From a virus: a stretch of 45,051 nt of DNA. The stretch spans positions 1 through 45,051 of IMG/VR virus record IMGVR_UViG_3300046459_000765; one strand, given 5' to 3'. Position 1 is the stretch's first letter. Each line of letters opens with the position of its first letter. Position numbers and translations under genes: made by a program. Below the pieces are notes generated by a model, which was not told where the DNA came from, did not search any database, and saw nothing but the letters and a program-made list of their open reading frames with translations. Below are positions 23,884 to 43,985 of this stretch, piece after piece.

Positions 23884-23915
23884 TATCCCAGTGTGGAGTT
23901 TCCCGAAAATGTCAA
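23884..23915 (-). promoter_or_regulatory. Class I repeated promoter element, site A
   Basis: TTGACA (23915-23910), 13 bases, CCACACTGGGATA (23896-23884) on the minus strand, then 1-4 bases to the polymerase start. One of five near-identical copies. No TATAAT-like hexamer sits at the usual 17-base spacing; ACTGGG does. Confidence 0.75.
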
Positions 23916-23919
23916 CCCC

Positions 23920-24234
23920 TCAGATAGTGATGCCGATTGACGGCAGGCGTTGCACCTTGTTGCAGATGATTTTCCGCGCGGCTGCTTCTAGCCGGTCGCG
24001 AACCTTTTCGAGGGCGTAACCCGTAATGAGGCGCAGCGCTTCCGGCGCGTCAGGACAGGCGTGCAGCGGCTCGGGGACCTTGGATTCCACCTGCCGGATG
24101 ACGTTGTCCACGAGCGTGTTTATCTCGTCCAGGGATTCCTGCGATACGCGCTTGAACTTGCCGGCCCGGTTTTTCTCCGAGCACAGTAAAAGGTATTCCC
24201 GCGTGTGGCTCTCCACGATGAACTTGTCGCTCAC
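23920..24234 (-). CDS. Hypothetical protein, 104 aa
   Basis: Starts at GTG24234, which forms a GTGA overlap with the small membrane protein gene upstream. The protein (VSDKFIVESHTREYLLL...) is charged and helical with no membrane segment or known motif. Its stop is followed within a few bases by the class I promoter of the DNA polymerase. Confidence 0.72.
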   Translation of the reverse strand: MSDKFIVESHTREYLLLCSEKNRAGKFKRVSQESLDEINTLVDNVIRQVESKVPEPLHACPDAPEALRLITGYALEKVRDRLEAAARKIICNKVQRLPSIGITI

Positions 24235-24374
24235 GGCGCACCCCATACGCAAAGCAGCAGCGCTGCGCCAACGAAAAAGACGGCAGCCAGCGCTGCCGCG
24301 CACTTGATGGCCAGGAGGAACCCAAAGCCGATGCAGACCCCAAGGCAGATGCGATAGACGGAGTCGAGGCTCAT
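24231..24374 (-). CDS. Small two-helix membrane protein, 47 aa
   Basis: 47 residues, nearly all hydrophobic: two membrane helices (about 8-22 with LGVCIGFGFLLAI, and 26-44 with ALAAVFFVGAALLLCV) joined by a KCAA turn. ATGA with the upstream gene and GTGA with the downstream gene show it is part of the operon. The topology would fit a small holin-like or accessory membrane protein, without further evidence. Confidence 0.68.
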   Translation of the reverse strand: MSLDSVYRICLGVCIGFGFLLAIKCAAALAAVFFVGAALLLCVWGAP

Positions 24375-24553
24375 CGGAGTCCAGGGGTTCGGGGTTTGTT
24401 GCCGCCGGCCGCGACCTTGGGTCGCTTGCTCAGGCGGGCTTTCGTTCCGACCGTGTCCGCAAGCGCGGCGTCGGAAAAACCGGCGCGGCCTTGCTTGATG
24501 CGGCCGAAGGCATCGCGCGCCGCTTGTGTCCGGCGCATGGTGTTCTTATTCAC
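24371..24553 (-). CDS. Small basic protein, 60 aa
   Basis: GTG start (24553) placed so that the first codons overlap the end of the preceding gene. Basic protein with MRRTQAARDAFGRIKQGRAG at its start and a Pro/Lys-rich tail (RLSKRPKVAAGGNK). Probably nucleic acid binding by charge alone; no family recognised. Confidence 0.65.
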   Translation of the reverse strand: MNKNTMRRTQAARDAFGRIKQGRAGFSDAALADTVGTKARLSKRPKVAAGGNKPRTPGLR

Positions 24554-24671
24554 GTTCGCTCTTTCTGTTTTCGGCGCGGCTGTAGCGACGTGCCGAGGGT
24601 TTCACTTTGGTGACCGGGGACATCGTGCCCCAGGTCTTACGAATCTTCGGTGCTTTGGGCTTATTCTTCAC
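24546..24671 (-). CDS. Small basic phage protein, 41 aa
   Basis: 41 residues from GTG24671: begins VKNKPKAPKIRKTWG, then SPVTKVKPSARRYSR. The K-T-W-G / P-V-T-K-V-K-P-S / RYSR pattern resembles a small basic protein I associate with many phages, usually missed because of its size. The excellent promoter upstream places the transcription start at the GTG itself, so the GTG would be the first codon of a leaderless message. It overlaps the next gene by 8 bases. Confidence 0.7.
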   Translation of the reverse strand: MKNKPKAPKIRKTWGTMSPVTKVKPSARRYSRAENRKSERE

Positions 24672-24677
24672 GCCCGC

Positions 24678-24706
24678 ATTCTAGCACGTCCCCCGCGCTT
24701 TGTCAA
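24678..24706 (-). promoter_or_regulatory. Strong sigma-70-like promoter TTGACA-N17-TAGAAT
   Basis: TTGACA (24706-24701), exactly 17 bases, TAGAAT (24683-24678). The start codon GTG24671 begins 7 bases after the -10 hexamer, where transcription should start. Best canonical promoter in the window. Confidence 0.85.
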
Positions 24707-24709
24707 ATT

Positions 24710-24945: not shown

Positions 24946-25752
24946 TTACTGCGCGCCGATGATTGCTTTGATGAACCCTTGGAAGAGGTCACCATTCTTC
25001 GTCGAGGCCCGCAGCTTCGGTTCGAAGTAATAGTTGTCGTCCTTGGACTGCTTGGTCGTGGTCAGCGTCCAGGAGTGCGTGAGGTATCCCTTCCGAAGGG
25101 AACCGATTTTCTTCTGCGTGCGGATGGCCTTGGCACCCTTGGTGTAGGCCGAGCCCTTCATGCCCCAGAGCGCGAGCGTGAAGTAGCGCGAAGGCTGCCC
25201 TTCGACCTCGAACACATACGGGAAGTCCAGCTGGTCCGGGTCCGCGTAGAAGTCCGGCTTCTCCACGAGGAGGAGCGCAGTGGCGAGCGTCTGGAAGTAG
25301 CGCAGCGGGCTCCCGCTGGACTTCGAGGCGTCCCATTCCTTCCAGCTCAGCGTGCCGTTGTGCTTGACCACTTCGGACTCGCTGTTGACGAGCAGACCCT
25401 GCTTGCCGCCGGGCAGCTTCTCCGCGTATTGCAGCGGACGAAAGCCGATGACCGTGAGGTTGAGCGGGGGCGTGCCCTTGTCCGTCTTGCTCTCGGGCGT
25501 GTGGATGACGTTTTGCGACGCCAACAGGATGGACCCGGGGTCGAAGCCCTGTTCGGTGGCCAGCTTGCCGACGAACTGGACGATGTTGATTCGCGGGAAG
25601 ACGATGTCTTCGTAGCGAATGTTGTCCTCATCGAAAAAGCCGGGGGTGGCTTCGCGGGTGGCGACTTCAGTTGACGCGGCCGGCGTCTCGGGTGCCGGGG
25701 GAACCGGCGTCGTGGTATCTTCCACGCCTTCTTTGACAAAACTCATGTTCAT
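24946..25752 (-). CDS. Probable single-stranded DNA-binding protein
   Basis: 268 residues. An acidic/Pro-rich N-terminus (1-40) is followed by a beta-rich core (about 45-260) with alternating hydrophobic strands and aromatic residues, for example VFPRINIVQFVG, PYVFEVEGQPSRYFTLALWG and HSWTLTTT. It lacks a classical acidic C-tail. It sits directly after a Cas4-like nuclease (with an AP2-HNH gene between) and has its own strong terminator. Both are typical for the highly expressed SSB of a phage replication module. The SSB call is from context and composition; no diagnostic motif exists. Confidence 0.55.
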   Translation of the reverse strand: MNMSFVKEGVEDTTTPVPPAPETPAASTEVATREATPGFFDEDNIRYEDIVFPRINIVQFVGKLATEQGFDPGSILLASQNVIHTPESKTDKGTPPLNLTVIGFRPLQYAEKLPGGKQGLLVNSESEVVKHNGTLSWKEWDASKSSGSPLRYFQTLATALLLVEKPDFYADPDQLDFPYVFEVEGQPSRYFTLALWGMKGSAYTKGAKAIRTQKKIGSLRKGYLTHSWTLTTTKQSKDDNYYFEPKLRASTKNGDLFQGFIKAIIGAQ

Positions 25753-26267
25753 GGTTTTTGGATTTTTGGTTGCGGTTTGCTAATGGGAAAATTCAAGCAA
25801 GCGAACTCCCCAAAGTATTTCAACGCGGCGGCATCATAAGCGCGCGCCGCCACCTCGGGTTCCGAAAAGGTCCCCAGATATTCGGTTCGGTCGCCGACCT
25901 TTATTTGGGCGCGCCACTTCCCCCTAATTAGATAGGCTCCTTTAAAGGGGTGTGGCGAAGATTTTCTACGGGCGCAGTTTGTGCCGTTCTGGGCCTTCGT
26001 TGCCCAGCGCAAATTTGCTCTCCGGTTATCGAGGGTGTCCCGATTGCGGTGGTCAATTATGTCCCCGGGGTCCGCCTCAGCCACCAACCGGTGCAGATAC
26101 ACTTGGCGATGCGCCTTTCGGCCCCCAGAATTCCTCACTGCATACCACAGCCCTCCTGGAGTTTTTTGTTTCGCGAACCACCGGAACCCGCGCACCAGTT
26201 CAAGGTCGAAGAAGTCGATAACAGTCACCTTCCCGCGGGACAGTGGCAAGAACACCTCAGCGCTCAT
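25749..26267 (-). CDS. HNH endonuclease with AP2 domain
   Basis: 172 residues. VFLPLSRGKVTVIDFFDLE and FRWFA at the N-terminus, HNH core YLHRLVAEADPGDIIDHRN, then DNRRANLRWATKAQN (about 55-90). AP2 domain at about 105-160: FKGAYLIRGKWRAQIKV, YLGTFSEPEVAARAYD, FGEFACLNF. It is inserted between the Cas4-like nuclease and the SSB-like gene with ATGA overlaps on both sides, so it travels in the operon rather than in an intron. Confidence 0.92.
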   Translation of the reverse strand: MSAEVFLPLSRGKVTVIDFFDLELVRGFRWFAKQKTPGGLWYAVRNSGGRKAHRQVYLHRLVAEADPGDIIDHRNRDTLDNRRANLRWATKAQNGTNCARRKSSPHPFKGAYLIRGKWRAQIKVGDRTEYLGTFSEPEVAARAYDAAALKYFGEFACLNFPISKPQPKIQKP

Positions 26268-27445
26268 TTCGCCTCCTTTTTCTTGGTGTCCATGCGGAGA
26301 TACGCGAAAGGCTCCGACTCCTCCACCAGCCCGGCCTCCAAAATTATCCTCCCGAACTCCTCGACGGTATCTTCTTTCGAGCCTCGCGGGGCCGCAACAG
26401 AAATTAACTTTTCCACCGGGCCGAGCGGCACCTCAAAAAGGGCTTCCAGAAGCGGCCACTGGTCCTCCGGCAGGAACTCCTTCGCCGTCTCGACCAGTTC
26501 GCGCGCCTTGCGGACGGAGCGCTTAACCGACGAGACGAGCCGATACCCCTCAGGGACAAACTTGTCGTCCATGATGGTCTTCTGCGTCGCCTGCGCGCGA
26601 TAGGCCTCAGCCCAGGCCTTGAGGACCATCGCGAGTTGCAGCCCGAGGCCCACGTCTTTCGGGTCGAGCATCATCGAGGGCGTCAGATTTTTCGGCACGT
26701 CGATGGGACGATACTTGCGACCGACGTGTAGTGCCAACTCCGCCACCTTGGGACAGGTGCCCAGCGCTCCGCAAAAACTGCATGCGGAGACGCTTGGGCG
26801 TGCCGTCAAAAAGTCTCCCGCACGCTTGGCTTCTATCGCCCTATGCACAACGGTTTTGATGCGCAAGAGGAGTGCGAGCGCGTTGGTCATATCGAAGGTG
26901 TGTTGGTCCACCTCGTCGCGATACGGGAGTAGGAAGGTCACCGTCACGTCGCGCAGCGTCGGGTATTTCTTGAACAGCCCGAGCGCGTAGGACACGCCTT
27001 GCAAATTATTCGAGGCCTCCTCCACGGCATGCTGGCCCATCTTATAGTCCACCAGCTCGCCGTGCAGGCCGTCCGCGGTGACCAGACCCCAGTCCATGAA
27101 GCCGGCCGTTGTGCCGAGGAACTTGCTGCGGGAGCGAAGCGGCGGCGGGTCATTCGCCCAGATTACTTCATCGTCCACCGGGAGGTATTGCTCGTTCAGG
27201 ACCGTGGCGCCGGGGAACTTGCTCGCGAGGTCATCACAGAACGCCTTGCACTGGGCGACCGCGGCTGCCTGGGCATCAGACAACCGCGGGTCGTCCAGAC
27301 CTTTTTCCGCCGCGTCGTGTTGCAGCGTGCCCGCCTCCGCCGCCTCGTTGGTGCCCCCGGACGGGGTCCAGCACGGGCAAGCCTCCCGAGCCTGTAGCGT
27401 GCTCGGGGAGTAGGGGTGATGGACTCGGGTTGCTGCGTTGCTCAT
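26264..27445 (-). CDS. Cas4/RecB-like PD-(D/E)XK nuclease (DUF2800-like)
   Basis: 393 residues. The N-terminus has YSPSTLQAREACPCW. The nuclease core is at about 115-145: GTTAGFMDWG (Asp), then GELVDYKMG with the E-x-V-D-Y-K metal/catalytic motif. A Q-x2-x-Y helix follows (NNLQGVSYALGLF). A later Cys cluster (CSFCGALGTCP, near 235) together with CPCW could hold a Fe-S cluster, as in Cas4/AddB-type enzymes. The expected role is 5' or 3' resection during recombination-dependent replication. A class I promoter element ends 6 bases before the ATG. Confidence 0.82.
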   Translation of the reverse strand: MSNAATRVHHPYSPSTLQAREACPCWTPSGGTNEAAEAGTLQHDAAEKGLDDPRLSDAQAAAVAQCKAFCDDLASKFPGATVLNEQYLPVDDEVIWANDPPPLRSRSKFLGTTAGFMDWGLVTADGLHGELVDYKMGQHAVEEASNNLQGVSYALGLFKKYPTLRDVTVTFLLPYRDEVDQHTFDMTNALALLLRIKTVVHRAIEAKRAGDFLTARPSVSACSFCGALGTCPKVAELALHVGRKYRPIDVPKNLTPSMMLDPKDVGLGLQLAMVLKAWAEAYRAQATQKTIMDDKFVPEGYRLVSSVKRSVRKARELVETAKEFLPEDQWPLLEALFEVPLGPVEKLISVAAPRGSKEDTVEEFGRIILEAGLVEESEPFAYLRMDTKKKEAK

Positions 27446-27451
27446 TACATC

Positions 27452-27483
27452 TATCCCAGTGTGGGGTTTTCGAAAAATGTCAA
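27452..27483 (-). promoter_or_regulatory. Class I repeated promoter element, site B
   Basis: TTGACA (27483-27478), 13 bases, CCACACTGGGATA (27464-27452), 6 bases to ATG27445 of the Cas4-like gene. It also overlaps the last codons and stop of the gene at 27480. Confidence 0.75.
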
Positions 27484-27665: not shown

Positions 27666-27889
27666 TGGTCATTCACCTCCTCTTCGAAATACGGTCCGGA
27701 CATCCAGTGGATGTCTCGGTAAGTTGTCAGCCGTTCGGGCTCTATGCGCCGACGCCAGCGTCGCAGGAACTTCGTCCTTCGCTTGCGCGACCAGCCGGCG
27801 CGCAGCTGTCCCGGACGGAAAAGCAGCCCCGCCTCTTCGGTGGTGACGCACCACGCGGTGTTCAGCCGCCTAGTATTCAAGGCAGGCAT
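27656..27889 (-). CDS. Hypothetical Arg-rich protein, 77 aa
   Basis: Start at ATG27889 (MPALNTRRLNTAWC). Strongly basic centre (SRKRRTKFLRRWRRRIEP) and acidic C-terminus (FEEEVND). No family recognised. It overlaps the AP2-HNH gene by 13 bases; the longer open frame upstream lies inside that gene and is rejected. Confidence 0.62.
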   Translation of the reverse strand: MPALNTRRLNTAWCVTTEEAGLLFRPGQLRAGWSRKRRTKFLRRWRRRIEPERLTTYRDIHWMSGPYFEEEVNDQCL

Positions 27890-28365
27890 GATGGAAAATT
27901 CGGTCGAGCGAACTCGCCGAAATGCTGGACAGCGGCCCTGTCGTAAGCCCGCGCCGCTTGAGTTATCGTTTCGAACACCCCAAGATGCTGATGTTTTCCG
28001 TTCACCCGGATTTCGGCTCGCCACTTGGCTCCGCACACCGCCACACCTTTATATGGATGCCGGGCGCCCGCGTATCGCTTCGCGTTCGCGATGTTCTGAG
28101 AGTTATTAGCTAGCCGGAGGTTTTCTTTTCGGTTGTCGAGAGGATTTTGATTCTTGTGGTCCACGCGCTGTCCCGGGGTTGCCCCGAGAATTTCGCGGTG
28201 CATTTTTATTGTGACTCCCGCACGAACCGTCTGGGCATACCCGGTGTAAGGCGTTCCATTTTTCCGAACGCCGCCTGCATAAATCCAGTTCCACGCGACG
28301 ATGCGTTCGTAGTCATCGTCGTCCACGAGCGCGACCCTATTTTGCGTGAGGGGAATTTCTTTCAC
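27877..28365 (-). CDS. HNH endonuclease with AP2 domain
   Basis: 162 residues. EIPLTQNRVALVDDDDYERI and WNWIYA at the N-terminus, then HNH core MHREILGATPGQRVDHKN, DNRKENLRLANNSQN (about 55-90). AP2 domain: YKGVAVCGAKWRAEIRV, HLGVFETITQAARAYD, FGEFARPNF. Third member of the family in this window. ATGA overlap with the secreted protein gene upstream. Confidence 0.92.
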   Translation of the reverse strand: MKEIPLTQNRVALVDDDDYERIVAWNWIYAGGVRKNGTPYTGYAQTVRAGVTIKMHREILGATPGQRVDHKNQNPLDNRKENLRLANNSQNIANAKRYAGARHPYKGVAVCGAKWRAEIRVNGKHQHLGVFETITQAARAYDRAAVQHFGEFARPNFPSCLP

Positions 28366-28907
28366 ATCAGTATCTTCAGCACCTCGATGGCACCTTCGTA
28401 GATGCTGCCTTCAACGGGGCACAGTCGTCCATTCTGGGGCTCGAAGAAAAACCACTGGCCGTCGTCCCGCAGGATGACGTTGATGGCATGGTAGCCTTGG
28501 GCATACGGCTCCCCCGCGGAGAGGGGATACGGGCCGTCCAGCTTAACAAAAGCCACCGCCATCGTCGGCGCTCCCCGCCGGCCGGCAGTGTGCCGCACTC
28601 CCCAGACGTTTGCCCAGTGGTAGGCTTCGAAAGCAAAAGAGTCACAATCCCACGCCTCCGGAATATACGGAAAAGGCTCGCGGCGCGCCTTGATAAAGGC
28701 GAGCATCTCGTCGATTTCCGATTGTGTGGGCGCGAAGTAATACGAGTCCATCGGGCCATTCTGCACCTCCAGATTTTTGCACGCCTCGGGCCAGAGCAGC
28801 GTGTTCATCGAGTCCCAAACAGTGAACCATGGGAGGACAGATGGGGAAGGGTTTTCGTCGGCGAAGATTGTCGCCGCCGCCAGCAGGAGAATTGCAATCA
28901 ATTTCAC
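28362..28907 (-). CDS. Secreted transglutaminase-like cysteine protein
   Basis: 181 residues from GTG28907. Signal peptide (hydrophobic 3-15, probable cleavage after IFA). The possible catalytic set is C88 in WDCDSFAFEAYHW, H140 in GYHAINVIL and an acidic position in FFFEPQNG (E156). The D-C-D-x-F-A, then H-A-x-N, then E-P-Q order is known from phage and bacterial transglutaminase-like cysteine peptidases. It would act in the envelope or outside the cell. It may be a lysis or superinfection factor; this is inference. A weak promoter precedes it. Confidence 0.75.
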   Translation of the reverse strand: MKLIAILLLAAATIFADENPSPSVLPWFTVWDSMNTLLWPEACKNLEVQNGPMDSYYFAPTQSEIDEMLAFIKARREPFPYIPEAWDCDSFAFEAYHWANVWGVRHTAGRRGAPTMAVAFVKLDGPYPLSAGEPYAQGYHAINVILRDDGQWFFFEPQNGRLCPVEGSIYEGAIEVLKILM

Positions 28908-28912: not shown

Positions 28913-28947
28913 ATCATAAGAAGTGGTGACGCAATTCGATTTGTCAA
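28913..28947 (-). promoter_or_regulatory. Possible promoter before secreted cysteine protein
   Basis: TATGAT (28918-28913) ends 5 bases before GTG28907, but the TTGACA at 28947-28942 is 23 bases away, too far for a normal spacer. The TTGACA overlaps the stop of the SprT-like gene. Confidence 0.35.
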
Positions 28948-31989: not shown

Positions 31990-32229
31990 TTATCCCAGTG
32001 TGGGTTTTTTCGGAAATGTCAACCCCTCCAGCTTGAAATTTTTCTTGGTGAAGAAGCGGCTGCTCCCCGCACGGTGGTCCACGATTAGCACCTCGCCGTT
32101 GTAAAAGCGCGCGACGATGAACGCCAATTGCTCACGCAATGCGGGCGGGATGGTGTTGTCGCCATAGTTCGGGAAACCGATTTCCACGAAGCGGGCGTCC
32201 AGTTCTTTTTCGAGTTTGTTAGGTTTCAT
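31990..32229 (-). CDS. Hypothetical protein, 79 aa
   Basis: From ATG32229 (MKPNKLEKELDARFVEIGFPNYG). Its C-terminal codons contain promoter site C. ATGA with the peptidase-like gene upstream. Charged, soluble, no recognised domain. Confidence 0.65.
   Translation of the reverse strand: MKPNKLEKELDARFVEIGFPNYGDNTIPPALREQLAFIVARFYNGEVLIVDHRAGSSRFFTKKNFKLEGLTFPKKPTLG
31991..32022 (-). promoter_or_regulatory. Class I repeated promoter element, site C
   Basis: TTGACA (32022-32017), 13 bases, CCACACTGGGATA (32003-31991), 4 bases to ATG31986. The element is also translated as the last residues (LTFPKKPTLG) of the gene at 31990-32229, so the promoter is built into coding sequence. Confidence 0.75.
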
Positions 32230-35731: not shown

Positions 35732-35733
35732 AA

Positions 35734-36203: not shown

Positions 36204-36222
36204 ACTTCAACGTCGCACGGGT

Positions 36223-36393: not shown

Positions 36394-36398
36394 GGCGT

Positions 36399-36427: not shown

Positions 36428-36428
36428 A

Positions 36429-36749
36429 TCAGGCGCCCTCCGGCAGGCGGGCCAGAAGGTCCTCGCGCGTGCGCACGCCGGCGCGAAATTCGCGCTCGAA
36501 AAACTTGGGCGAGAAGGGCTTGCCGACCTTCGGCGCGTCCACCCAGACCCGCTCCAACGGCTCGGGCGCGAGGTGCCGGAAGTGCGCGTGCCCCTTGTCG
36601 AAGAAGTAGCACACGTCCCCCACGCGCGCGCTGACGCGCACGTAAAGACCGCCGCCGAAGCCCCAGGCGTTGTTGGTGTTGATGGTTTCCTCTCCGAAAA
36701 CGGAGCCGCCGGCATCGGTGATTAGCTTGGTGAATTGTGGGATGTTCAT
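36429..36749 (-). CDS. Hypothetical protein, 106 aa
   Basis: From ATG36749 (MNIPQFTKLITDAGGSVFGEE). Beta-rich with GFGGGLYVRVSARVGDVCYFF and a charged helix (PKFFEREFRAGVRTREDLLARL). No recognised family. Confidence 0.65.
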   Translation of the reverse strand: MNIPQFTKLITDAGGSVFGEETINTNNAWGFGGGLYVRVSARVGDVCYFFDKGHAHFRHLAPEPLERVWVDAPKVGKPFSPKFFEREFRAGVRTREDLLARLPEGA

Positions 36750-36765
36750 TGGCGTGCGGGTCAAG

Positions 36766-36987
36766 TTATTCGATGAAGCCACAGCCGTAAACGCCGCCGT
36801 TGTAGCTGGTGAAGCGGATGCTGTCGTTGCGCGGGTCCGCCGTGCAGACGCCCCGGAAATACGCCGCGCGGCGCCCGCCCTCGGACGGGTAGGGCACCGC
36901 GAGCCACGCGTCAACCACGAGGAACGCATAGCCATGCACGTAAACGGTTTGGCCGATGTGAACGGGAATCAAAAAGGTGTCTTTCAT
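36766..36987 (-). CDS. Hypothetical protein, 73 aa
   Basis: From ATG36987 (MKDTFLIPVHIGQTVYVHGYAF). Strand-rich, with AAYFRGVCTADPRNDSIRFTS and YGCGFIE at the end. The first M of the longer frame is inside the preceding membrane-protein gene. Confidence 0.62.
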   Translation of the reverse strand: MKDTFLIPVHIGQTVYVHGYAFLVVDAWLAVPYPSEGGRRAAYFRGVCTADPRNDSIRFTSYNGGVYGCGFIE

Positions 36988-36991
36988 GGGA

Positions 36992-37132
36992 TTAGCGGGG
37001 AAGGATGGCCGCGGCAATCAGGTTAGAGAGGACGTAGATGACCGCGGTCACGACCACGACCATAGCCACGACAACGTAGCCGTTCGGGAAGAGAATCGCG
37101 TCCCGCACCGCGTTGAGGATGTTTTTCATCAT
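36992..37132 (-). CDS. Small membrane protein, 46 aa
   Basis: One membrane helix (about 19-38: VVVAMVVVVTAVIYVLSNL) after a short charged start (NILNAVRDAILF). A possible promoter ends 5 bases before ATG37132, so the first ATG is preferred over 37129. Confidence 0.62.
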   Translation of the reverse strand: MMKNILNAVRDAILFPNGYVVVAMVVVVTAVIYVLSNLIAAAILPR

Positions 37133-37137
37133 GTGGA

Positions 37138-37165
37138 AAGATACCACGGGCGGCGCTGGGCGCAA
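37138..37165 (-). promoter_or_regulatory. Possible TTGCGC-N16-TATCTT promoter
   Basis: TATCTT (37143-37138) is 5 bases before ATG37132; TTGCGC lies 16 bases upstream of it (or CTTGCG at 17). GTGGTATCTT recurs at 39183. Confidence 0.45.
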
Positions 37166-37175
37166 GTCCGTAGTT

Positions 37176-37346
37176 CTACGGTTCGTAGATGCGGCCGGTG
37201 AGGATGTCCACGATTTGGAAGTGGTCGCGCTTCAGCCGGAAGGCCTCGGTCAGCGCCTCGTCGCGCGTCGGGTAGCTGCCGACGTAGTCTTTCATGCCCC
37301 CGCCGGGATACCAGTCGTCGAAACAGAAAAGCAAGTAGCGGCTCAT
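37176..37346 (-). CDS. Small conserved-type protein, 56 aa
   Basis: MSRYLLFCFDDWYPGGGMKD, then VGSYPTRDEALTEAF and a hydrophobic-strand end (FQIVDILTGRI). The YLLF-x-x-D-D-x-Y-P-G-G-G-M pattern reminds me of a small protein found in several phages. A 43-base gap separates it from the next start. The function is unknown. Confidence 0.65.
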   Translation of the reverse strand: MSRYLLFCFDDWYPGGGMKDYVGSYPTRDEALTEAFRLKRDHFQIVDILTGRIYEP

Positions 37347-37351
37347 GGGAA

Positions 37352-37747
37352 TTATTTGGAACGGCGGACACGATACTTCAGCCCGCTCTTAATGGTTTTG
37401 AGGACCGACAGCGCCTCGGCGCGCGTGGGGTAGCTCCTATCATAAGAGCCGCTGCGCTCCCAGCCCCAGGAAAACTGGCATTCGAGGTGCCACCAGTTCG
37501 GCACCAGCGGTGGAAGGTGGTCGTCTGGCACCGCGTCCGTCCGGGGCGGCGCCGACGCCGCAACCGCCACGAGGAACGGGTTGGCATCGCCCGGGCCGAC
37601 CACGGCGGCGGCGCGGGTGAGCGCGTCCTGCATGATGCCGGCCGGACCGCCGGTCAGACGGAGATGGTTCTCGGCCGACTTGCGCGCGAGGTAGGTGAAA
37701 AACTCCGCGTCTTCCAGGGACGGGAACGAGATGGTGACGGTGTGCAT
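37352..37747 (-). CDS. Hypothetical protein, 131 aa
   Basis: MHTVTISFPSLEDAEFFTYL start, helix with GIMQDALTRAAAVVG, later a Trp-rich motif (NWWHLECQFSWGWERSGSYD) and TRAEALSVLKTIK. Soluble accessory protein, unknown function. Confidence 0.68.
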   Translation of the reverse strand: MHTVTISFPSLEDAEFFTYLARKSAENHLRLTGGPAGIMQDALTRAAAVVGPGDANPFLVAVAASAPPRTDAVPDDHLPPLVPNWWHLECQFSWGWERSGSYDRSYPTRAEALSVLKTIKSGLKYRVRRSK

Positions 37748-37766
37748 GGTGGTGCGGCTTAGAGGG

Positions 37767-38060
37767 TTAAAAGTCGCCCAAGTAAATGCGCACCGCGCGC
37801 AACCAGTCGGAACGGTGGACTTTGCCGTTCACAACGGCGAAAACCGCCAGCGCGCCGCGGGTGCCGAGCCGTTCGGCAACCCGGTTCTGGATGACGATGA
37901 CGACAACGCGATGGTCTGGCGTCGTGATGGTATGGTTGTAAGTTTCCCAGACCCGGCCGCAAACTTGTTCGCGTTCGTCGGTCCGGGTGACGGTCGCCCC
38001 CGCCTCTTTCAGGCGGTGAATGTAGGCCAGGGCTTCGGAGCGTTTCTGGTTGATGGTCAT
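37767..38060 (-). CDS. Hypothetical protein, 97 aa
   Basis: MTINQKRSEALAYIHRLKEAG start, followed by strands (YNHTITTPDHRVVVIVIQN) and a compact core. Possibly a small nucleic-acid-associated fold; not recognised. Confidence 0.65.
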   Translation of the reverse strand: MTINQKRSEALAYIHRLKEAGATVTRTDEREQVCGRVWETYNHTITTPDHRVVVIVIQNRVAERLGTRGALAVFAVVNGKVHRSDWLRAVRIYLGDF

Positions 38061-38064
38061 ATGA

Positions 38065-38274
38065 TTACTCCAGGGTAAGGAACGACGCCGACCCGAAGGG
38101 CACCACGTCCTTGACGTCCACCTGCGCGCTGTGGCTGTAGCGGCCGGTGAGATGGTAGCTGACCGTGACCAGGGCGCCGGAGACGGCGACCACGGTGCCG
38201 GAGTTTGACGCGCCGTCCGCGGTCTTGAAGACCACGCTGGCGCCCACGCGAATCGGACTTTGGTTTTTCTTCAT
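38065..38274 (-). CDS. Small SH3-like protein, 69 aa
   Basis: Beta-rich, SH3-like pattern: IRVGASVVFKTADGASNSGTV, VVAVSGALVTVSYHL, then VDVKDVVPFG. Such folds often bind DNA or protein partners. A promoter places its mRNA start right before ATG38274. Confidence 0.65.
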   Translation of the reverse strand: MKKNQSPIRVGASVVFKTADGASNSGTVVAVSGALVTVSYHLTGRYSHSAQVDVKDVVPFGSASFLTLE

Positions 38275-38279
38275 AGTGG

Positions 38280-38308
38280 AATGTCGCCCAGGTCGGGCGG
38301 GTTGTCAA
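38280..38308 (-). promoter_or_regulatory. TTGACA-N17-GACATT promoter
   Basis: TTGACA (38308-38303), exactly 17 bases, GACATT (38285-38280), then CCACT and ATG38274. Confidence 0.65.
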
Positions 38309-38309
38309 A

Positions 38310-38735
38310 TTATTCTTTCGCCTGTTTGAAGGCGCGAAGCTCGGCCTCGCCGCGCGTGCGCAGGTCGCATAGCCGGACCACGTCGTCCAAGTCCAGCTTG
38401 ACGCCGTAGTCATCCAGCGTGGACCACACGCCGTCCGGGTCCCCGGGCATCATCGCAATGGCCGTCGCCAGCACGCTACGGTGCCGCAGCGCGACCGCGT
38501 CGCACAGCGCCTCGATATACGCCGCCCAGGTCGGGCAGGCCGCGCGCCGGGCATCATAGGACATGCGCCGCCCCTCCGCGATTTGCATTGCCGTCACGCC
38601 CGGCTTGGCGTGCCGGTGGCGCTTCCAGCCGTCGCCTTGGTTGCGCAAAACGTGGCCGTTGGACATCACCACGATGGTGCCCGATTCGTATTCGAACCGC
38701 CCCAGCTCCGTGCCGTTTCGTTTGAGGGTGGCCAT
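38310..38735 (-). CDS. Hypothetical protein, 141 aa
   Basis: From ATG38735 (MATLKRNGTELGRFEYESG); an upstream ATG would extend into the previous gene. Strand-rich start, then helical with many Ala/Arg (AYIEALCDAVALRHRS). Acidic-helix end (LCDLRTRGEAEL). Function unknown. Confidence 0.68.
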   Translation of the reverse strand: MATLKRNGTELGRFEYESGTIVVMSNGHVLRNQGDGWKRHRHAKPGVTAMQIAEGRRMSYDARRAACPTWAAYIEALCDAVALRHRSVLATAIAMMPGDPDGVWSTLDDYGVKLDLDDVVRLCDLRTRGEAELRAFKQAKE

Positions 38736-38736
38736 A

Positions 38737-38934
38737 TCAGTGCCAATCAATTGTGGTTATTGTTGCTTCCGAGAGTTTCAGAATGTTGAAAATTTCCATC
38801 GCCGCTTTGTATTCAGGCTTGGTCAATTTATGCATCCGGTTCAAGGCGTGCGCAAACTCATTCGCATCCCGGCAAACATTCATCGCGCCGCATTTCGTCT
38901 CCATTTTCAGGACTTTTTTCGTGGGGGTGGCCAT
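38737..38934 (-). CDS. Small helical protein, 65 aa
   Basis: From ATG38934. MATPTKKVLKMETKCGAMNV, then HALNRMHKLTKPEYKAAMEI and FNILKLSEA. One base separates its stop from the next start. The E-I-F-x-[IV]-L patch recurs in the gene at 35226-35477. Confidence 0.65.
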   Translation of the reverse strand: MATPTKKVLKMETKCGAMNVCRDANEFAHALNRMHKLTKPEYKAAMEIFNILKLSEATITTIDWH

Positions 38935-38938
38935 ATAG

Positions 38939-39148
38939 TTAGGCTCCAATGACTTCGGTTGAACCGATGCCGCACGCCTTGATGAAGCGCGCGTCGGAAA
39001 AGTTGGGGTTGCTGTCCGCGCAGACGCGGGCGATGCGTCCCGCCAACGTGGCGATAGCGGCCCGGGCTTCCACGTTGCCAGTGATGAACGTGTGGTTGTA
39101 TTCGGCGCGGATTTCCTCGGCGAGTGCTGTGAAGTGTTTTCGGCTCAT
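38939..39148 (-). CDS. Hypothetical protein, 69 aa
   Basis: MSRKHFTALAEEIRAEYNHT start, a short helical protein of the kind (TALAEEIRAEY ... TLAGRIARVCADSNPNFSDARF) often seen in phage accessory regions. Function unknown. Confidence 0.68.
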   Translation of the reverse strand: MSRKHFTALAEEIRAEYNHTFITGNVEARAAIATLAGRIARVCADSNPNFSDARFIKACGIGSTEVIGA

Positions 39149-39182
39149 GGTATCTAATCTGGTTTATGTTTACCGACGCCAG

Positions 39183-39210
39183 AAGATACCACAGGCAGGA
39201 CCCGCAGCAA
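39183..39210 (-). promoter_or_regulatory. Possible TTGCTG-N16-TATCTT promoter
   Basis: TATCTT (39188-39183), with TTGCTG 16 bases upstream. The GTGGTATCTT block matches that at 37138. The start codon is 35 bases away, so this one would have a leader. Confidence 0.35.
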
Positions 39211-39233
39211 GTTACGTTTGCGTTACGGGAATG

Positions 39234-39578
39234 TTACGACGCCGTCCGCGCCTGCAACCATTCCGGGTCGCGACGCGTGAAGTTTTTCTCAATTCCGCAC
39301 CACTGAAAGCAATTCGCCTCGTTGCCGGCCTGCGCGTAGAACGGCGCGAGCAGCGCGGCTGTCGCCGCAGAGGCGAACCCGTAGGGGCCGAGGATGAACA
39401 ACGCAACGCCGCACTGCGCCGCGCCCGCGTCATGGTGGAAGTTTGACGCGCCGCCCTGCGTCAGCCAGCGCGCGAGCGCTTCCTCGGGCACGCCCGGGCA
39501 CACGAAAACGTCCATGCGCCGTTCGGTTGGGATGATTGCTTGGACGACGTGGCCCAGGCTGCCGGCGACGTCAGACAC
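39234..39578 (-). CDS. Hypothetical protein, 114 aa
   Basis: GTG39578 start overlapping the stop of the micro-gene upstream. Contains a strand pattern (MDVFVCPGVPEEALARWL), a Gly-rich helix (GVALFILGPYGFASAATAALLA) and FQWCGIEKNF at the end. It may associate with membrane; unrecognised. Confidence 0.65.
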   Translation of the reverse strand: MSDVAGSLGHVVQAIIPTERRMDVFVCPGVPEEALARWLTQGGASNFHHDAGAAQCGVALFILGPYGFASAATAALLAPFYAQAGNEANCFQWCGIEKNFTRRDPEWLQARTAS

Positions 39579-39648
39579 CTTTACTCCTCCAGAGGATGAA
39601 CATGAGGAGCGCCACGGCCAGCGCGCAGAGGACGAAGGTGTTGCTCAT
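39571..39648 (-). CDS. Micro membrane protein, 25 aa
   Basis: MSNTFVLCALAVALLMFILW followed by RSKGV: one membrane helix with a basic inside tail. ATGA overlap with the upstream gene and an overlap with the GTG start downstream show it is fixed in the operon. Confidence 0.65.
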   Translation of the reverse strand: MSNTFVLCALAVALLMFILWRSKGV

Positions 39649-39854
39649 CGCAGGAAGTCCTCCGGCATTGTGTTGAGGAACTCCACGACGGCCTCGGCGA
39701 GCCGCGTCGTGTTGCTATGCACGCCGTGTCCGCCCTCGGCCAGGAAAAAAACATTCATGTTGCGTTCCACGTCGCGGATGACGACGGTATATGGTTCGTA
39801 AACCAGCGCGAAGCGCGGCGGTGCTCCCCCCGGGCGCGCAGCGAACTGGCTCAC
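39645..39854 (-). CDS. Hypothetical protein, 69 aa
   Basis: MSQFAARPGGAPPRFALVYE start, then VVIRDVERNMNVFFLAEGG and a helix with ALEAVVEFL-like character. ATGA on both sides. No family known. Confidence 0.68.
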   Translation of the reverse strand: MSQFAARPGGAPPRFALVYEPYTVVIRDVERNMNVFFLAEGGHGVHSNTTRLAEAVVEFLNTMPEDFLR

Positions 39855-40051
39855 AGCGGCACCCCATTGATTCTCTCAGGCTTCGTTGGCCAGGAAAACT
39901 TAAACCAGAACGTGCGGTGGTAGAGCGTCAGATAGATGGTGCGCGAGCGCGCTTGTGCGCAGTGGCCAGGGTAGCCGCACGAGAGGCAGAATTCCCACGG
40001 GCTGTGTATCCAGCGATACGTGCCGAAGTCAAAAAGTTTGAAGGGTTTCAT
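39851..40051 (-). CDS. Hypothetical aromatic protein, 66 aa
   Basis: From ATG40051 (MKPFKLFDFGTYRWIHSPWE) with CLSCGYPGHC as a possible zinc knuckle and YLTLYHRTFWFKFS as an aromatic strand. The longer open frame overlaps the upstream gene and is not used. Stop forms ATGA with the next gene. Confidence 0.65.
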   Translation of the reverse strand: MKPFKLFDFGTYRWIHSPWEFCLSCGYPGHCAQARSRTIYLTLYHRTFWFKFSWPTKPERINGVPL

Positions 40052-40245
40052 TTGGGCATTGATACGCAGGTCACGCACAGCGGGCAGAACCACCAAACGC
40101 GATACGCGATGTCATACGACTTCGTCGCGAAGCGTGCGCATCTCCACCGCCAGTTCAGACGCCGCACTTGAAAGTGGTGCCGGCCCCACGACCAGCGGAA
40201 AAGTAGCGGCGAGAGCCGATGCGTGTTGTTCTTTGGTAACTCCAT
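40048..40245 (-). CDS. Possible overlapping gene, 65 aa
   Basis: MELPKNNTHRLSPLLFRWSW start; the C-terminus has WWFCPLCVTCV, a possible zinc site. The stop forms ATGA with the next gene, which supports translation, but 134 bases lie inside the better-looking gene at 40112-40438 in another frame. A late GTG start would avoid most of the overlap. Doubtful as annotated. Confidence 0.4.
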   Translation of the reverse strand: MELPKNNTHRLSPLLFRWSWGRHHFQVRRLNWRWRCARFATKSYDIAYRVWWFCPLCVTCVSMPK

Positions 40246-40438
40246 AAACTTTTTTGTAGCCCCTTCGGGACTTGGTGAATGCTTCATCTAACGAGGGATG
40301 AACCCGCGGGAATTCAATGTCCATTAGTCGCTCGTTATACGCGGCTACATCGCTCGTGCGGTCCGAGTCGCCTTTGCCTGCACCATGCAGGCCGAAGCTG
40401 CGGTTGCCGCCTGCCGCGGATTTAATGTTGGGATTCAT
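40112..40438 (-). CDS. Hypothetical protein, 108 aa
   Basis: From ATG40438 (MNPNIKSAAGGNRSFGLHG). Basic, with GAGKGDSDRTSDVAAYNERL, a helical core and RRGYKKVYGVTKEQHASALA. ATGA with the upstream gene. No known family. It overlaps the 3'-ward gene at 40048-40245. Confidence 0.68.
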   Translation of the reverse strand: MNPNIKSAAGGNRSFGLHGAGKGDSDRTSDVAAYNERLMDIEFPRVHPSLDEAFTKSRRGYKKVYGVTKEQHASALAATFPLVVGPAPLSSAASELAVEMRTLRDEVV

Positions 40439-40626
40439 GGCGTCACCCACTTTCCTTGCACACGACACCACACCTTCGCCGGCTTAAGACCAGCCTGCGC
40501 GTCGGCTTGAATGCGCGCGATTAATTCGAGCGTGAGCCGGCGTGGCTCGGTGCTGAAGTCACCGTGGCCCATGCACACCCCGCGGTCATAGCCGTGCTCG
40601 TCCATCCATTCTTGCGGCGTCTTCAT
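40435..40626 (-). CDS. Small hypothetical protein, 63 aa
   Basis: MKTPQEWMDEHGYDRGVCMG start, then helix (LTLELIARIQADAQAGLKPA) and VWCRVQGKWV. ATGA on both ends. Unknown function. Confidence 0.68.
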   Translation of the reverse strand: MKTPQEWMDEHGYDRGVCMGHGDFSTEPRRLTLELIARIQADAQAGLKPAKVWCRVQGKWVTP

Positions 40627-40790
40627 TCTTGTTCAGGCTCCCATTCCTTCGGCAAAAGTTTTCCGGTTTGTTGCGTGAACATTTCGTTCAGCGCTTCCTT
40701 TACGTCGTGGTCCGCGGGTCCGAAGTCCGTGTTGAGTCGAAACCATTTCAGGTATTCGATTTCCGTGGCCCGTTGTCTCCGCGTCTTCAT
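40623..40790 (-). CDS. Small hypothetical protein, 55 aa
   Basis: From ATG40790 (MKTRRQRATEIEYLKWFRLN), then a helix with DVKEALNEMFTQQTGK. ATGA with 40626. Charged and soluble. Confidence 0.62.
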   Translation of the reverse strand: MKTRRQRATEIEYLKWFRLNTDFGPADHDVKEALNEMFTQQTGKLLPKEWEPEQE

Positions 40791-40791
40791 A

Positions 40792-40869
40792 TCAGTGCGT
40801 CCGGTCCCACCAGCCCTTGGCATGACCCACCAAATAAATGATGACCAACACGAGGAGGAAAAGTTTCAT
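40792..40869 (-). CDS. Micro membrane protein, 25 aa
   Basis: MKLFLLVLVIIYLVGHAKGW, then WDRTH: a single membrane helix. ATGA with the upstream two-helix membrane protein at 40866-41111, and its TGA lies one base before the next ATG. Confidence 0.65.
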   Translation of the reverse strand: MKLFLLVLVIIYLVGHAKGWWDRTH

Positions 40870-41111
40870 GGCTTGCGCAGCTTGCGCGCGCACCACAGCC
40901 AGACGGACGCGATGACGCCGACGACCAGGGGTATCAACACCACACCGGCCAGGGTAACCACAACCAAGGCGGCGGTGCCCCAGAGCGGCGCCGTCACCCA
41001 CCACCAGGACCAGTCGATGACGTGACACAGCTTCAGTGCGGTGAACAGGAGGAACAACCAGCCGGCGATGCCGATGCCGCTGGACGATGACGAGGATTGT
41101 TTTTCACTCAT
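40866..41111 (-). CDS. Two-helix phage membrane protein, 81 aa
   Basis: From ATG41111. Ser-rich start, then membrane helix 1 (about 14-27, IAGWLFLLFTALKL), a WSWWW turn, membrane helix 2 (about 42-70, hydrophobic Ala/Val-rich) and a basic tail. The I-x-W-x-W-W-W-V pattern is typical of a small phage membrane protein family, some of which are holin-like. Lysis role unproven. ATGA downstream with the 25-aa membrane protein. Confidence 0.72.
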   Translation of the reverse strand: MSEKQSSSSSSGIGIAGWLFLLFTALKLCHVIDWSWWWVTAPLWGTAALVVVTLAGVVLIPLVVGVIASVWLWCARKLRKP

Positions 41112-41409
41112 AGTGTTGTGGATTTCGGTCCATGCATTCGAGGATGGCGAGCGCAACGGCAGCGACCTGGACGGCTTCAACGCGCAGGTTCCCCGGGTTC
41201 GGCCGCGTGGCTCCATCAAAACGTTGGCGCAGGATTTCTTCAGCGAATTCGCCGACTTCCTCGGTGAGGATAGTTAGCCACAACTCCAGGCTGTGGTTCT
41301 GTTCACCAAACCGCGCGTCCTGGCGTGCGCGCTCCCGGAGCACGTCGGCCACGGCGCACGATTGAATGACGCTCGCCGTGTCGATGGTTAGTGCGTGAGT
41401 CGTGGTCAT
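41104..41409 (-). CDS. MazG-like nucleotide pyrophosphohydrolase
   Basis: 101 residues. The core reads ERARQDARFGEQNHSLELWL, then LTEEVGEFAEEI (E-E-x-G-E) and ENVRVEA-like helix (NLRVEAVQVAAVALAILE) with the acidic metal ligands of MazG-type all-alpha NTP pyrophosphatases. These hydrolyse (d)NTPs to monophosphates and PPi. With the DUF5664-like protein it suggests active control of the nucleotide pool. ATGA with the gene downstream. Confidence 0.78.
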   Translation of the reverse strand: MTTTHALTIDTASVIQSCAVADVLRERARQDARFGEQNHSLELWLTILTEEVGEFAEEILRQRFDGATRPNPGNLRVEAVQVAAVALAILECMDRNPQHYE

Positions 41410-42182
41410 AGGCTGGGCAGCTGTTCGATTTCACTCGGCTCACCGACCGCGCTGATGGGCTGGCCCGTGATGGCGTCGGTCTCTTCAACGAGCGGCGCAC
41501 CGAACGCGTCCGCGTCGTTAGCGGCTGCAGCTTCCGCCGCTTTGCGCGCTTCCTGCTCGGCTTGGTGTTGCATCACCGCCTGAAAATAGGTGTTGAGCGC
41601 ATTGGATAGGAGGTTCGCCACGCTTTCATCCATCGCGATGGCGAAGGGCCGGCTGTCGTGCGTGGCCAGATATTTCTGGGTCCACGGCATGTGCAGCGGG
41701 TGATTGGCCGGGCGCGGGCGGTCTGCGATTTTGCAAAACGTGCCGTCGGGTGCCGGCGAGAAGGACAGCTTGGGTCGCGCGGCCTCGGGCCGGGTGTCAG
41801 CCACTGGTGCCCCTTGGGCATTTACGGGGACGATGAGATTTTTCGACATGGTCGGTTGTGGTTTCGGTTGTGGTTTCGGTTTCAAAAATTGGGACCCAGG
41901 ATGCGTCGGGGCCGTCGTCGCCGCGCTTTTGGTAGGCGATAACCCGAGCTGCCGGCCTTTCGGTTGTGGCGCTCGCTTCAGCGCTGCGCCCGGGATTTTC
42001 CCGTATTGCGCGCCGAACGCGGCGGCTGCTCCCTTCACGTTCTCCGTCGCCTCGGGGCTCGTGAGGCCCTGCGCACGATAGCGCAGCATCCGCCGCTCCC
42101 GCTCGATTTGCGAGAGGCTGTCGTTGAAGATGGGCTGGATTGGCCCCGGCGGCGGCGCTTTGATGTCCTCTGGTCGGCTCAT
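41406..42182 (-). CDS. Hypothetical Pro/Ala-rich protein, 258 aa
   Basis: Residues 1-110 are basic and Pro/Lys-rich, including repeated K-P-Q-P units near 100. Residues 110-260 contain FCKIADRPRPANHPLHMPWT and a helical Ala-rich end (QAEQEARKAAEAAAANDADA). No domain recognised. The K-P-Q-P low complexity may be recent. An internal ATG (MSKNLIVPVN, near 112) is possible. Confidence 0.65.
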   Translation of the reverse strand: MSRPEDIKAPPPGPIQPIFNDSLSQIERERRMLRYRAQGLTSPEATENVKGAAAAFGAQYGKIPGAALKRAPQPKGRQLGLSPTKSAATTAPTHPGSQFLKPKPQPKPQPTMSKNLIVPVNAQGAPVADTRPEAARPKLSFSPAPDGTFCKIADRPRPANHPLHMPWTQKYLATHDSRPFAIAMDESVANLLSNALNTYFQAVMQHQAEQEARKAAEAAAANDADAFGAPLVEETDAITGQPISAVGEPSEIEQLPSL

Positions 42183-42445
42183 AATTTTGGTGGGAGGGAT
42201 TCATCAATACATTGCACCGCGTTCTCGATGCGGGCCAAAAGAATGTTGGTCTTCTCCAGCTTCTTCGCGATGTCCACGAGCAAGTCGGCTAGACCGACAC
42301 CGGGCGTTGTGATTGGCACCCACTTGCCGGCGCACTCATTGTAGCGATAGAACACACCGCCGCTTTCCCACACTAGGGACTTGTCCGGCTCGTAAGGCGC
42401 GGGCATCGGGGGCGGCTGAACTTCGGCGAGGTCAGAAATTTTCAC
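42179..42445 (-). CDS. Hypothetical protein, 88 aa
   Basis: MKISDLAEVQPPPMPAPYEP start, then strand (GGVFYRYNECAGKWVPITTP), and a helix (LLVDIAKKLEKTNILLARIE) at the C-terminus. ATGA on both sides. Function unknown. Confidence 0.68.
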   Translation of the reverse strand: MKISDLAEVQPPPMPAPYEPDKSLVWESGGVFYRYNECAGKWVPITTPGVGLADLLVDIAKKLEKTNILLARIENAVQCIDESLPPKL

Positions 42446-42813
42446 GGCAGTTCGAACTTGATTTCGACGGTGGCCAGGACGCTCGCGCCCGCTTTCGCCA
42501 CGGCTTCCTCACGCGTATCGAAAAACCCCGCGCCGGGATACGGCTCACCCCCGTTGCTGCGCGCGTAGATGTTGAGGTAGCGCGTGACGGTTTCCACGGG
42601 CGTGAACAAGTCGAGGTCGCTATCGCGGTCCGTGTAGAAACGGCCGTTGGAATACCAGCCGGTGAGCGTTTCCCCATGTTCGGTCATCCTGGCGCCCGCG
42701 ATGTCGTTGTTCGTGCCGAGGTCGAACGCGAAAAGGCGCACCTGTTCGCCGTCGCGGGTTACCGCGCGCAGGGTTCGTTTGGCTTCGTCAAGGTTGAAGG
42801 GTTTCGTTTTCAT
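42442..42813 (-). CDS. Hypothetical protein behind class I promoter
   Basis: 123 residues. MKTKPFNLDEAKRTLRAVTR, then RDGEQVRLFAFDLG and a beta-rich middle (GWYSNGRFYTDRDSDLDLF). The C-terminus has RVEEAVAKAGA-like helices and a VEIKFELP strand. The combination is typical of short phage early proteins, but no function is known. Class I site D ends 7 bases before the ATG. Confidence 0.7.
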   Translation of the reverse strand: MKTKPFNLDEAKRTLRAVTRDGEQVRLFAFDLGTNNDIAGARMTEHGETLTGWYSNGRFYTDRDSDLDLFTPVETVTRYLNIYARSNGGEPYPGAGFFDTREEAVAKAGASVLATVEIKFELP

Positions 42814-42820
42814 CTCTACC

Positions 42821-42852
42821 TATCCCAGTGTGGACTTTTTGGAAAATGTCAA
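42821..42852 (-). promoter_or_regulatory. Class I repeated promoter element, site D
   Basis: TTGACA (42852-42847), 13 bases, CCACACTGGGATA (42833-42821), 7 bases to ATG42813. It lies in the gap after the stop at 42857. Confidence 0.75.
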
Positions 42853-42856
42853 GAGG

Positions 42857-43543
42857 CTACCGGCAGGCGTGAAGAGAAATGGGCAGGCATCCGCGCCGTT
42901 CCGCCAAGGCATTCTCTTCGTCGCGCTGGTCGCATCGTTGCAGCCACGCCAGCAGGTGCGCGTGTAGTGGGTTCTCTTGGTCCAGGTCCGCAGACTCACA
43001 GCCCAAGCGTTCCTTTGCGAGGTCCACGGCGTTCCATGACGAGTGTTTGGTGCCGATGACGAGGAACCCCCGAAGCACAAGGGCGCACTTCATGTGGTCG
43101 ATTTCACATGCCAACCGCCCCCACGACAGCGCATGCGTGTTCGTGTTCACATAATTACCGCGGCTGGTCTGAATGCGAATGGCCCAGCGCCCGGCCTTAT
43201 GGCACCAGAAAAGCCCGCGGATGCGTCGCTCAGGTTCGTTTTCATCCAGGCCGCGCCATGTCGGTCCATCGTCCGGCCGCTCATACCGACGCGCCAGGGT
43301 AGGCGCGGCAACCAACGGCGGCGCGGCTGCCCGCTCCACCTCACCATTCCAGCGGTCACGCGTCTCGGGTTTCATACGCGAATCCGAAATGCGTTTGAGC
43401 ACCGCTTCCTTCCACTCGGCTAGCCGCTTGGCGGCGAATTCCACCGGCCCGCCGGTGCGTGTGTAGAGGTCCCATTCCCTCCACATCAGGCGCAGGGTAT
43501 GAAGGTCCGCGTTTAGGATGCGGGTGGTTTTGTAAGAGCGCAT
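42857..43543 (-). CDS. Hypothetical protein, 228 aa
   Basis: MRSYKTTRILNADLHTLRLM start. Helical first half; central segment GLFWCHKAGRWAIRIQTSRG, then a helical end with CDQRDEENALAERRG. The IRGLFWCHKAGRWAIRIQ stretch loosely resembles AP2-type DNA-binding sequences (G-x-[FY]-x-x-x-x-x-W) and could be a remnant of such a domain. It overlaps the endonuclease VII gene by 31 bases; the true start may be later (ATG43486). Confidence 0.62.
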   Translation of the reverse strand: MRSYKTTRILNADLHTLRLMWREWDLYTRTGGPVEFAAKRLAEWKEAVLKRISDSRMKPETRDRWNGEVERAAAPPLVAAPTLARRYERPDDGPTWRGLDENEPERRIRGLFWCHKAGRWAIRIQTSRGNYVNTNTHALSWGRLACEIDHMKCALVLRGFLVIGTKHSSWNAVDLAKERLGCESADLDQENPLHAHLLAWLQRCDQRDEENALAERRGCLPISLHACR

Positions 43544-43950
43544 GCTTCAGCGATGTCTGTGCGGTGTTCGTCGTGGTATTCCATTGCGCGCCGGCACCGC
43601 TCCCGGTCTTTCAGGAAACCGATTCCAGTGTTGCAGTTTTTGCAAAGCATCGCGCGAAACTTGCCGGAAGAATGACAATGGTCCACCACCAACTCCTCGA
43701 AAGGAAAAATGGTGCGGCAGATTGGGCACTGATAGGCTTGGTCCCGGGCTTTCTGGCGCACTTGTTCGGGCGTCACCCCATAGTGGTGCTTGCGGGCATA
43801 CTCCAGCGTCTTGTGCGGGTTTTTCTTTTGCCACTCCTTGGTCTTCTCAAGTGCGCACTTGCGACAGTAACCCACGCCCTTGTCCACAATAGAGGGTGAC
43901 GCGGTCGCGCTATTCAGATGCACTCCGCAGTTTGAGCATTCACATCTCAC
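43513..43950 (-). CDS. Endonuclease VII-type recombination endonuclease
   Basis: 145 residues from GTG43950. Two zinc knuckles: CECSNC with CRKC, then CPIC with CKNC. The core VVDHCHSSGKFRAMLCKNCN and GIGFLKD carries the D-H-C-H and N-x-G-x-G motif of T4 gp49-like resolvases. It cuts branched DNA, for example during packaging. The GTG is chosen because the longer frame would read through the promoter element; it is 3 bases after class I site E. Confidence 0.88.
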   Translation of the reverse strand: MRCECSNCGVHLNSATASPSIVDKGVGYCRKCALEKTKEWQKKNPHKTLEYARKHHYGVTPEQVRQKARDQAYQCPICRTIFPFEELVVDHCHSSGKFRAMLCKNCNTGIGFLKDRERCRRAMEYHDEHRTDIAEACALTKPPAS

Positions 43951-43953
43951 ACC

Positions 43954-43985
43954 TATCCCAGTGTGGCATTTTCCCAGATTGTCAA
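43954..43985 (-). promoter_or_regulatory. Class I repeated promoter element, site E
   Basis: TTGACA (43985-43980), 13 bases, CCACACTGGGATA (43966-43954), 3 bases to GTG43950. It abuts the inverted repeat and drives the leftward cluster from its right end. Confidence 0.75.

What the first reader, a model, noticed from the sequence alone, without database searches (positions are those of the whole stretch)
23884..43985. Five near-identical 32-bp promoter elements, TTGACA-N13-CCACACTGGGATA, in front of minus-strand operons
Copies at 23884-23915, 27452-27483, 31991-32022, 42821-42852 and 43954-43985 keep the 6-mer and 13-mer exactly and the 13-base spacer length exactly, while spacer bases vary. 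They precede the polymerase, Cas4-like, two unknown and the endonuclease VII genes. There is no TATAAT at normal spacing. The set looks like one regulon, either a nonstandard promoter or a promoter plus operator.
Basis: partly seen in the sequence, partly recalled or inferred. Interest (0 to 1): 0.75.

Follow-up and report, generated by a model that had tools for sequence, protein, structure and literature searches.

The report
Phage sigma factor's own promoters
The five repeated DNA elements are very probably the on-switches read by a gene-control protein (sigma factor) that this uncultured phage carries itself, and in related phages the switch and the protein appear to have changed together at matching positions, a natural version of a classic laboratory mutation.

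Summary
The five elements are real and exact (0 expected by chance). The best description is not TTGACA-N13-CCACACTGGGATA but a bipartite promoter, TTRACA-N16-CACTGG. In the window and four relatives (~338 kb) TTRACA-Nk-CACT occurs 59 times at k=16 and at most 3 times at any other k from 8 to 26. The window encodes a sigma factor (regions 2 and 4) at 18804-19583. In relatives G019 and G020 all nine replication-strand GG promoters read TTAACA, and the sigma recognition helix reads TRARVHQ instead of TRER[IV]RQ: E585A and R588H, the two sigma-70 positions known to set specificity at that base (-33). TC promoters there mostly keep TTGACA, so something else may read them. No T7-type polymerase was found. 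Start codons lie about where transcription should begin, so mRNAs are probably leaderless or nearly so. Not shown: transcription start sites, host, TC reader.

The parts
23884..23915 (-). GG-class promoter (TTGACA-N16-CACTGG-GATA) of DNA polymerase part 1 (22701-23882); the operon continues to the sigma gene
27452..27483 (-). GG-class promoter of the DUF2800/Cas4-like exonuclease gene 26264-27445
31991..32022 (-). GG-class promoter of conserved unknown gene 31498-31989 (orthologous promoters in G003, G017, G019)
42821..42852 (-). GG-class promoter of unknown gene 42442-42813; fills the gap between two genes
43954..43985 (-). GG-class promoter of the endonuclease VII gene (about 43513-43950), outermost on this strand, next to a 35-bp inverted repeat
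28916..28947 (-).
681..712 (+).
11585..11616 (+).
44143..44174 (+). Divergent TC-like site (TTGACT-N16-CACCTC) of gene 44181-44342; the relative G003 has TTGACA-N16-CACCTC at the matching place
18804..19583 (-). Phage sigma factor, 259 aa: sigma-70 region 2 (19128-19331) and region 4 (18852-18989), no region 3 match; proposed reader of the GG class

Best explanation
The five elements are promoters for host RNA polymerase carrying the phage's own sigma factor (18804-19583). Sigma region 4.2 binds TTGACA as the -35 box. The diverged region 2.3/2.4 recognises CACTGG as a noncanonical -10 box 16 bp downstream. RNA starts about 7-8 nt further on, at a T/purine step, so the start codon lies 0 to about 8 nt into the message and the mRNA is leaderless or nearly so. 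They drive the replication and middle genes, including the operon that holds the sigma gene (an autoregulatory loop). Sequence features, geometry and co-variation are shown; binding, start sites and timing are inferred.
For: Geometry: 59 TTRACA-N16-CACT sites against 0-3 at any other spacing from 8 to 26. 54 of 59 have a start codon with an ORF of at least 40 codons within 2-21 nt, against 26% of random positions. The only sigma-70 region 2+4 protein in each genome keeps TRERIRQ in the window, matching RpoD residues 583-589. Co-variation: replication-strand GG promoters have A at -33 in 9/9 of G019+G020 and 0/15 of the window, G003 and G017; the G019/G020 sigmas have E585A and R588H; E585Q and R588H relax sigma-70 specificity at -33 and E585 contacts that base pair (PMC2613000). 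Further contigs L055, L074 and L091, nearest to G019/G020, also have TTAACA at GG sites. At -12 the box has C instead of T, and sigma differs at Q437 (S) and T440 (A or K), the residues whose changes suppress T to C at -12. Precedent: the sigma of phage 7-11 reads GTAAtg-(16)-aCTA, with starts 6-9 bp from the element (PMC8948821).
Against: No transcription data and no host. The G to A change is probably one ancestral event (the G019 and G020 sigmas are 83% identical), so the Fisher values (about 1e-6) overstate independence. The AlphaFold model is poor (pLDDT 50), so region-2 contacts rest on alignment. GG sites on the structural strand of G019/G020 keep TTGACA (4/4), so CACTGG alone does not define the regulon. 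Position 34 (T) and A29 are also conserved, so the -10 boundary is uncertain.
Confidence: 0.8

Rival explanations
1. The elements are host sigma-A promoters overlaid with an operator: TTGACA is read by host RNAP and CCACACTGGGATA binds a phage regulator or activator.
For: TTGACA is the consensus host -35; T4 middle promoters show that phage activators can adapt host sigma. Some host-type promoters (TTGACA-N17-TANNNT, -10 ending about 5-6 nt before the start codon) are present.
Against: No -10 hexamer at 16-18 bp. CACT is locked at exactly 16 bp and shared by two classes. The -33 change tracks the phage sigma's -33 residues and is limited mainly to one class within a genome, which a host change would not explain.
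Confidence: 0.1
2. The elements are promoters of a phage single-subunit RNA polymerase (T7-like), starting at GGG after CACACT.
For: The 3' half loosely resembles T7-family cores such as CACTATAGGGA (own knowledge).
Against: No PF00940 match in five genomes, while phage T7 used as positive control rings at 1e-109. Relatives have GGTA instead of GGGA. A TTGACA box is fixed 16 bp upstream. The 2433-aa protein has no significant match in the PDB sequence set.
Confidence: 0.03
3. An extended -10 reading: TG-n-TATAAG with a 22-bp spacer from TTGACA.
For: Relatives read ACTGGTATAAG, which looks like TGnTATAAn.
Against: Start sites would then fall inside or after the start codon (for example CACTGGTATAAGTAGATG), the spacer is 5-6 bp too long for sigma-70 geometry, and the TATA part is not kept (TAAGAG, TTAGAG), while CACT is.
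Confidence: 0.04
4. One sigma reads both the GG and TC classes, and the -35 difference in G019/G020 is drift.
For: Same spacing and shared CACT; only one sigma found per genome. Two TC sites in the G019/G020 group also have TTAACA.
Against: Within G019/G020, GG replication-strand sites are 9/9 A and the other sites 1/17 A.
Confidence: 0.3

Closest known systems
Promoters of the phage 7-11 sigma factor SaPh711_gp47 (GTAAtg-(16)-aCTA; PMC8948821)
   Same: Bipartite, 16-bp spacing, short noncanonical -10, read by host core RNAP with a phage sigma, few highly conserved copies.
   Different: -35 is TTGACA/TTAACA and -10 is CACTGG; two classes; start codon adjacent to the promoter; replication rather than only late genes. 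Sequence relationship of the two sigmas was not tested.
phiEco32 gp36 promoters (tAATGTAtA; PMC8948821, PMC4331800)
   Same: Phage sigma with middle/late promoters just upstream of operons.
   Different: Single element without -35; here region 4 and a -35 box are both present.
Canonical sigma-70/sigma-A promoters
   Same: TTGACA -35 and conserved region 4.2 helix.
   Different: No TATAAT; CACTGG instead. Region 2 residues W433, W434, Q437 and T440 are replaced by P, Y, S and A/K.
Start-associated sequences of cluster K mycobacteriophages (GGGATAGGAGCCC, from memory)
   Same: GGGATA just upstream of start codons.
   Different: GGGATAGGAGC does not occur in the window; GGGATA is not kept in relatives.

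Membership tests
sigma-70 family factor (the protein) | Sigma70 region 2 and region 4 domains above curated cut-offs | tested here: met
   PF04542 35.6 bits (cut-off 24), PF04545 49 bits (cut-off 24.1)
Phage-sigma-dependent promoter (7-11/phiEco32 kind) | Phage encodes a sigma factor and repeated phage-specific motifs precede operons | tested here: met
Phage-sigma-dependent promoter (7-11/phiEco32 kind) | Transcription from the motif by core RNAP plus phage sigma, mapped 5' ends | not testable with these tools
   No host and no RNA data
Canonical sigma-70 promoter | TATAAT-like -10 at 16-18 bp from TTGACA | tested here: not met
   Sequences; the 32000-45051 scan found 0 canonical sites
T7-like phage RNA polymerase promoter | Genome encodes a single-subunit RNA polymerase | tested here: not met
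   with phage T7 as positive control; the window itself is a partial genome, so G003, G017, G019 and G020 carry the test
Cluster K start-associated sequence | GGGATAGGAGCCC before start codons | tested here: not met

The most novel reading that the evidence does not exclude
A phage lineage with no cultured relative runs a leaderless transcription programme from two promoter classes that share -35 and spacing but differ in -10 (CACTGG versus CACTTC). The sigma and the -33 base of one class have co-evolved through exactly the E585/R588 positions known from laboratory suppressors, while the second class is read by a still unrecognised specificity factor.
Probability: 0.4. Interest if true: 0.72.

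Novelty: new variant of a known kind. Interest (0 to 1): 0.55.

Why it matters
Promoter specificities of phage sigma factors are rarely predictable from sequence. Here protein and DNA determinants can be paired at single positions (-33 with 585/588; -12 with 437/440), giving a natural, testable case of sigma-promoter co-evolution. It also supplies a promoter map for an uncultured soil-type phage group and shows that a second specificity factor may be missing from current annotation.

Tried and rejected
Megablast of 20 kb of the window against GenBank phages: no match. Terminase, portal-sized, capsid-candidate and internal-protein queries found one weak terminase hit or nothing. Host search through sigma and capsid-candidate relatives in GTDB genomes: none. 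A second sigma: the only extra region-4-like hit in G017 is a serine recombinase; relaxed Pfam scans of ten unknown window proteins gave nothing sigma-like. T7-like polymerase: first search had no working control, repeated with T7 as control, negative. Structure prediction of sigma: too weak to use. An invertible promoter at the inverted repeat: loop orientation is the same in near-identical contigs. First relaxed pattern scan failed because I placed the A-tract one base off, corrected.

Full report
OBSERVATION. The five 32-bp elements are present exactly as described, with no further copy within 3 mismatches and none in shuffled sequence. They lie on the minus strand before genes for DNA polymerase (family A, split in two ORFs), a DUF2800/Cas4-like exonuclease, two unknown proteins and endonuclease VII.

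RELATIVES. The window is a 45-kb part of a phage genome of about 72-74 kb. Relatives exist only in IMG/VR: G003 (sigma 97% identical), G017 (78%), G019 and G020 (66%). Cultured phages gave no nucleotide match, and four structural or packaging queries gave at most one weak match. No relative was found in GTDB genomes by sigma or capsid-candidate queries. The host is therefore unknown.

GEOMETRY. Scanning the window and four relatives showed the shared core TTRACA - 16 bp - CACT: 59 sites at 16 bp, 0-3 at every other spacing from 8 to 26. The two bases after CACT are GG (29 sites), T[CA] (29) or GT (1). Over all fetched loci, which were partly chosen by these patterns, 104 distinct sites give 54 GG, 49 TC/TA and 1 other. 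Collection-wide scans of IMG/VR for the TC pattern gave 41 stretches, 40 with nucleotide similarity to this group or already among its contigs; the GG pattern gave 27 stretches, 18 of them related. Sites are followed by start codons within 2-21 nt in 54 of 59 cases, against 26% of random positions.

TWO CLASSES. GG sites lie mainly on the replication-gene strand (24 of 29). TC sites lie mainly on the structural strand, before the genes next to a terminase-like gene, a 732-aa conserved gene and the operon of a very conserved 315-aa capsid candidate (the last two identities are inferred from size, conservation and place). One TC site lies on the replication strand, before a gene for a protein with a signal-peptide-like start (28362-28907). 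This suggests that TC is a late class whatever the strand; timing is inferred.

SIGMA. The window encodes one sigma-70-type protein, regions 2 and 4 above Pfam cut-offs, and each relative has one. Its region 4.2 helix TRERIRQ equals RpoD 583-589 (ungapped alignment). Region 2.3/2.4 reads YAKPYIRSEIA where RpoD reads YATWWIRQAIT, so W433, W434, Q437 and T440 are changed.

CO-VARIATION. In G019 and G020 all nine replication-strand GG promoters read TTAACA; the 15 in the window, G003 and G017 read TTGACA. The G019/G020 sigmas read TRARVHQ: E585A and R588H. A review states that E585Q and R588H relax sigma-70 specificity at -33 and that E585 contacts this base pair (PMC2613000). The changed base and the changed residues coincide. 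In the same two genomes structural-strand GG sites (4/4) and 12 of 13 TC sites keep TTGACA. Three more contigs nearest to G019/G020 show the same GG pattern. The two sigmas are 83% identical, so this is probably one evolutionary event, and the test values assume more independence than there is.

INITIATION. If CACTGG is the -10 box (C at -12, A at -11), the conserved T at position 34 followed by a purine would be -1/+1, 7-8 nt downstream. This puts start codons 0 to about 8 nt into most messages. Shine-Dalgarno-like sequences are scarce (7 of 39 window genes, 18%, against 12% at random places). Host-type sites TTGACA-N17-TANNNT often end 5-6 nt before a start codon (18 against 7 in a reversed control, so only some are real). 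All this points to leaderless mRNAs; none of it is measured.

ALTERNATIVES. A T7-like polymerase was not found, with T7 itself as a working control. A promoter-plus-operator reading does not explain the fixed spacing or the co-variation.

KNOWN PARALLEL. The sigma of phage 7-11 reads GTAAtg-(16)-aCTA (PMC8948821). This is the nearest known kind; the present case is a new specificity and adds the -33 co-variation and the second class.

Noticed in passing
window 43988-44022 and 44075-44109; G003 16067-16236; G017 10582-10742; G019 22235-22356: A perfect inverted repeat (arms 35, 36, 43 and 25 nt; AT-rich loop 52-98 nt) lies within about 13 bp upstream of the outermost GG promoter, in the divergent region. 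It was the only such repeat found in each of these genomes, with different arm sequences each time; none was found in G020. It could be a replication origin or a regulatory hairpin.
   Followed up: partly
window genes generally: Shine-Dalgarno motifs are nearly absent (7 of 39 genes), and many starts follow AT-rich stretches such as TAATTT-ATG, which may hint at the host group.
   Followed up: partly
window 24706 (-); G020 69511 (-) and 71856 (-); G017 253 (-): Host-type promoters TTGACA-N17-TANNNT, most with the -10 ending 5-6 nt before a start codon: candidate early leaderless promoters.
   Followed up: partly
window 22701-23882 and 21802-22701 (-): The family-A DNA polymerase is split into two adjacent ORFs in the window and in all four relatives.
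   Followed up: no
G003 10942-11634 (-), G017 16427-17146 (+), G020 8461-9270 (+): A small serine recombinase (PF00239) sits among the late genes; its target is unknown.
   Followed up: no
window 18329-18802, 25749-26267, 27877-28365 (-): Three related HNH-endonuclease-like ORFs, at least two by PHROG match, scattered in the replication region; probable homing endonucleases.
   Followed up: no
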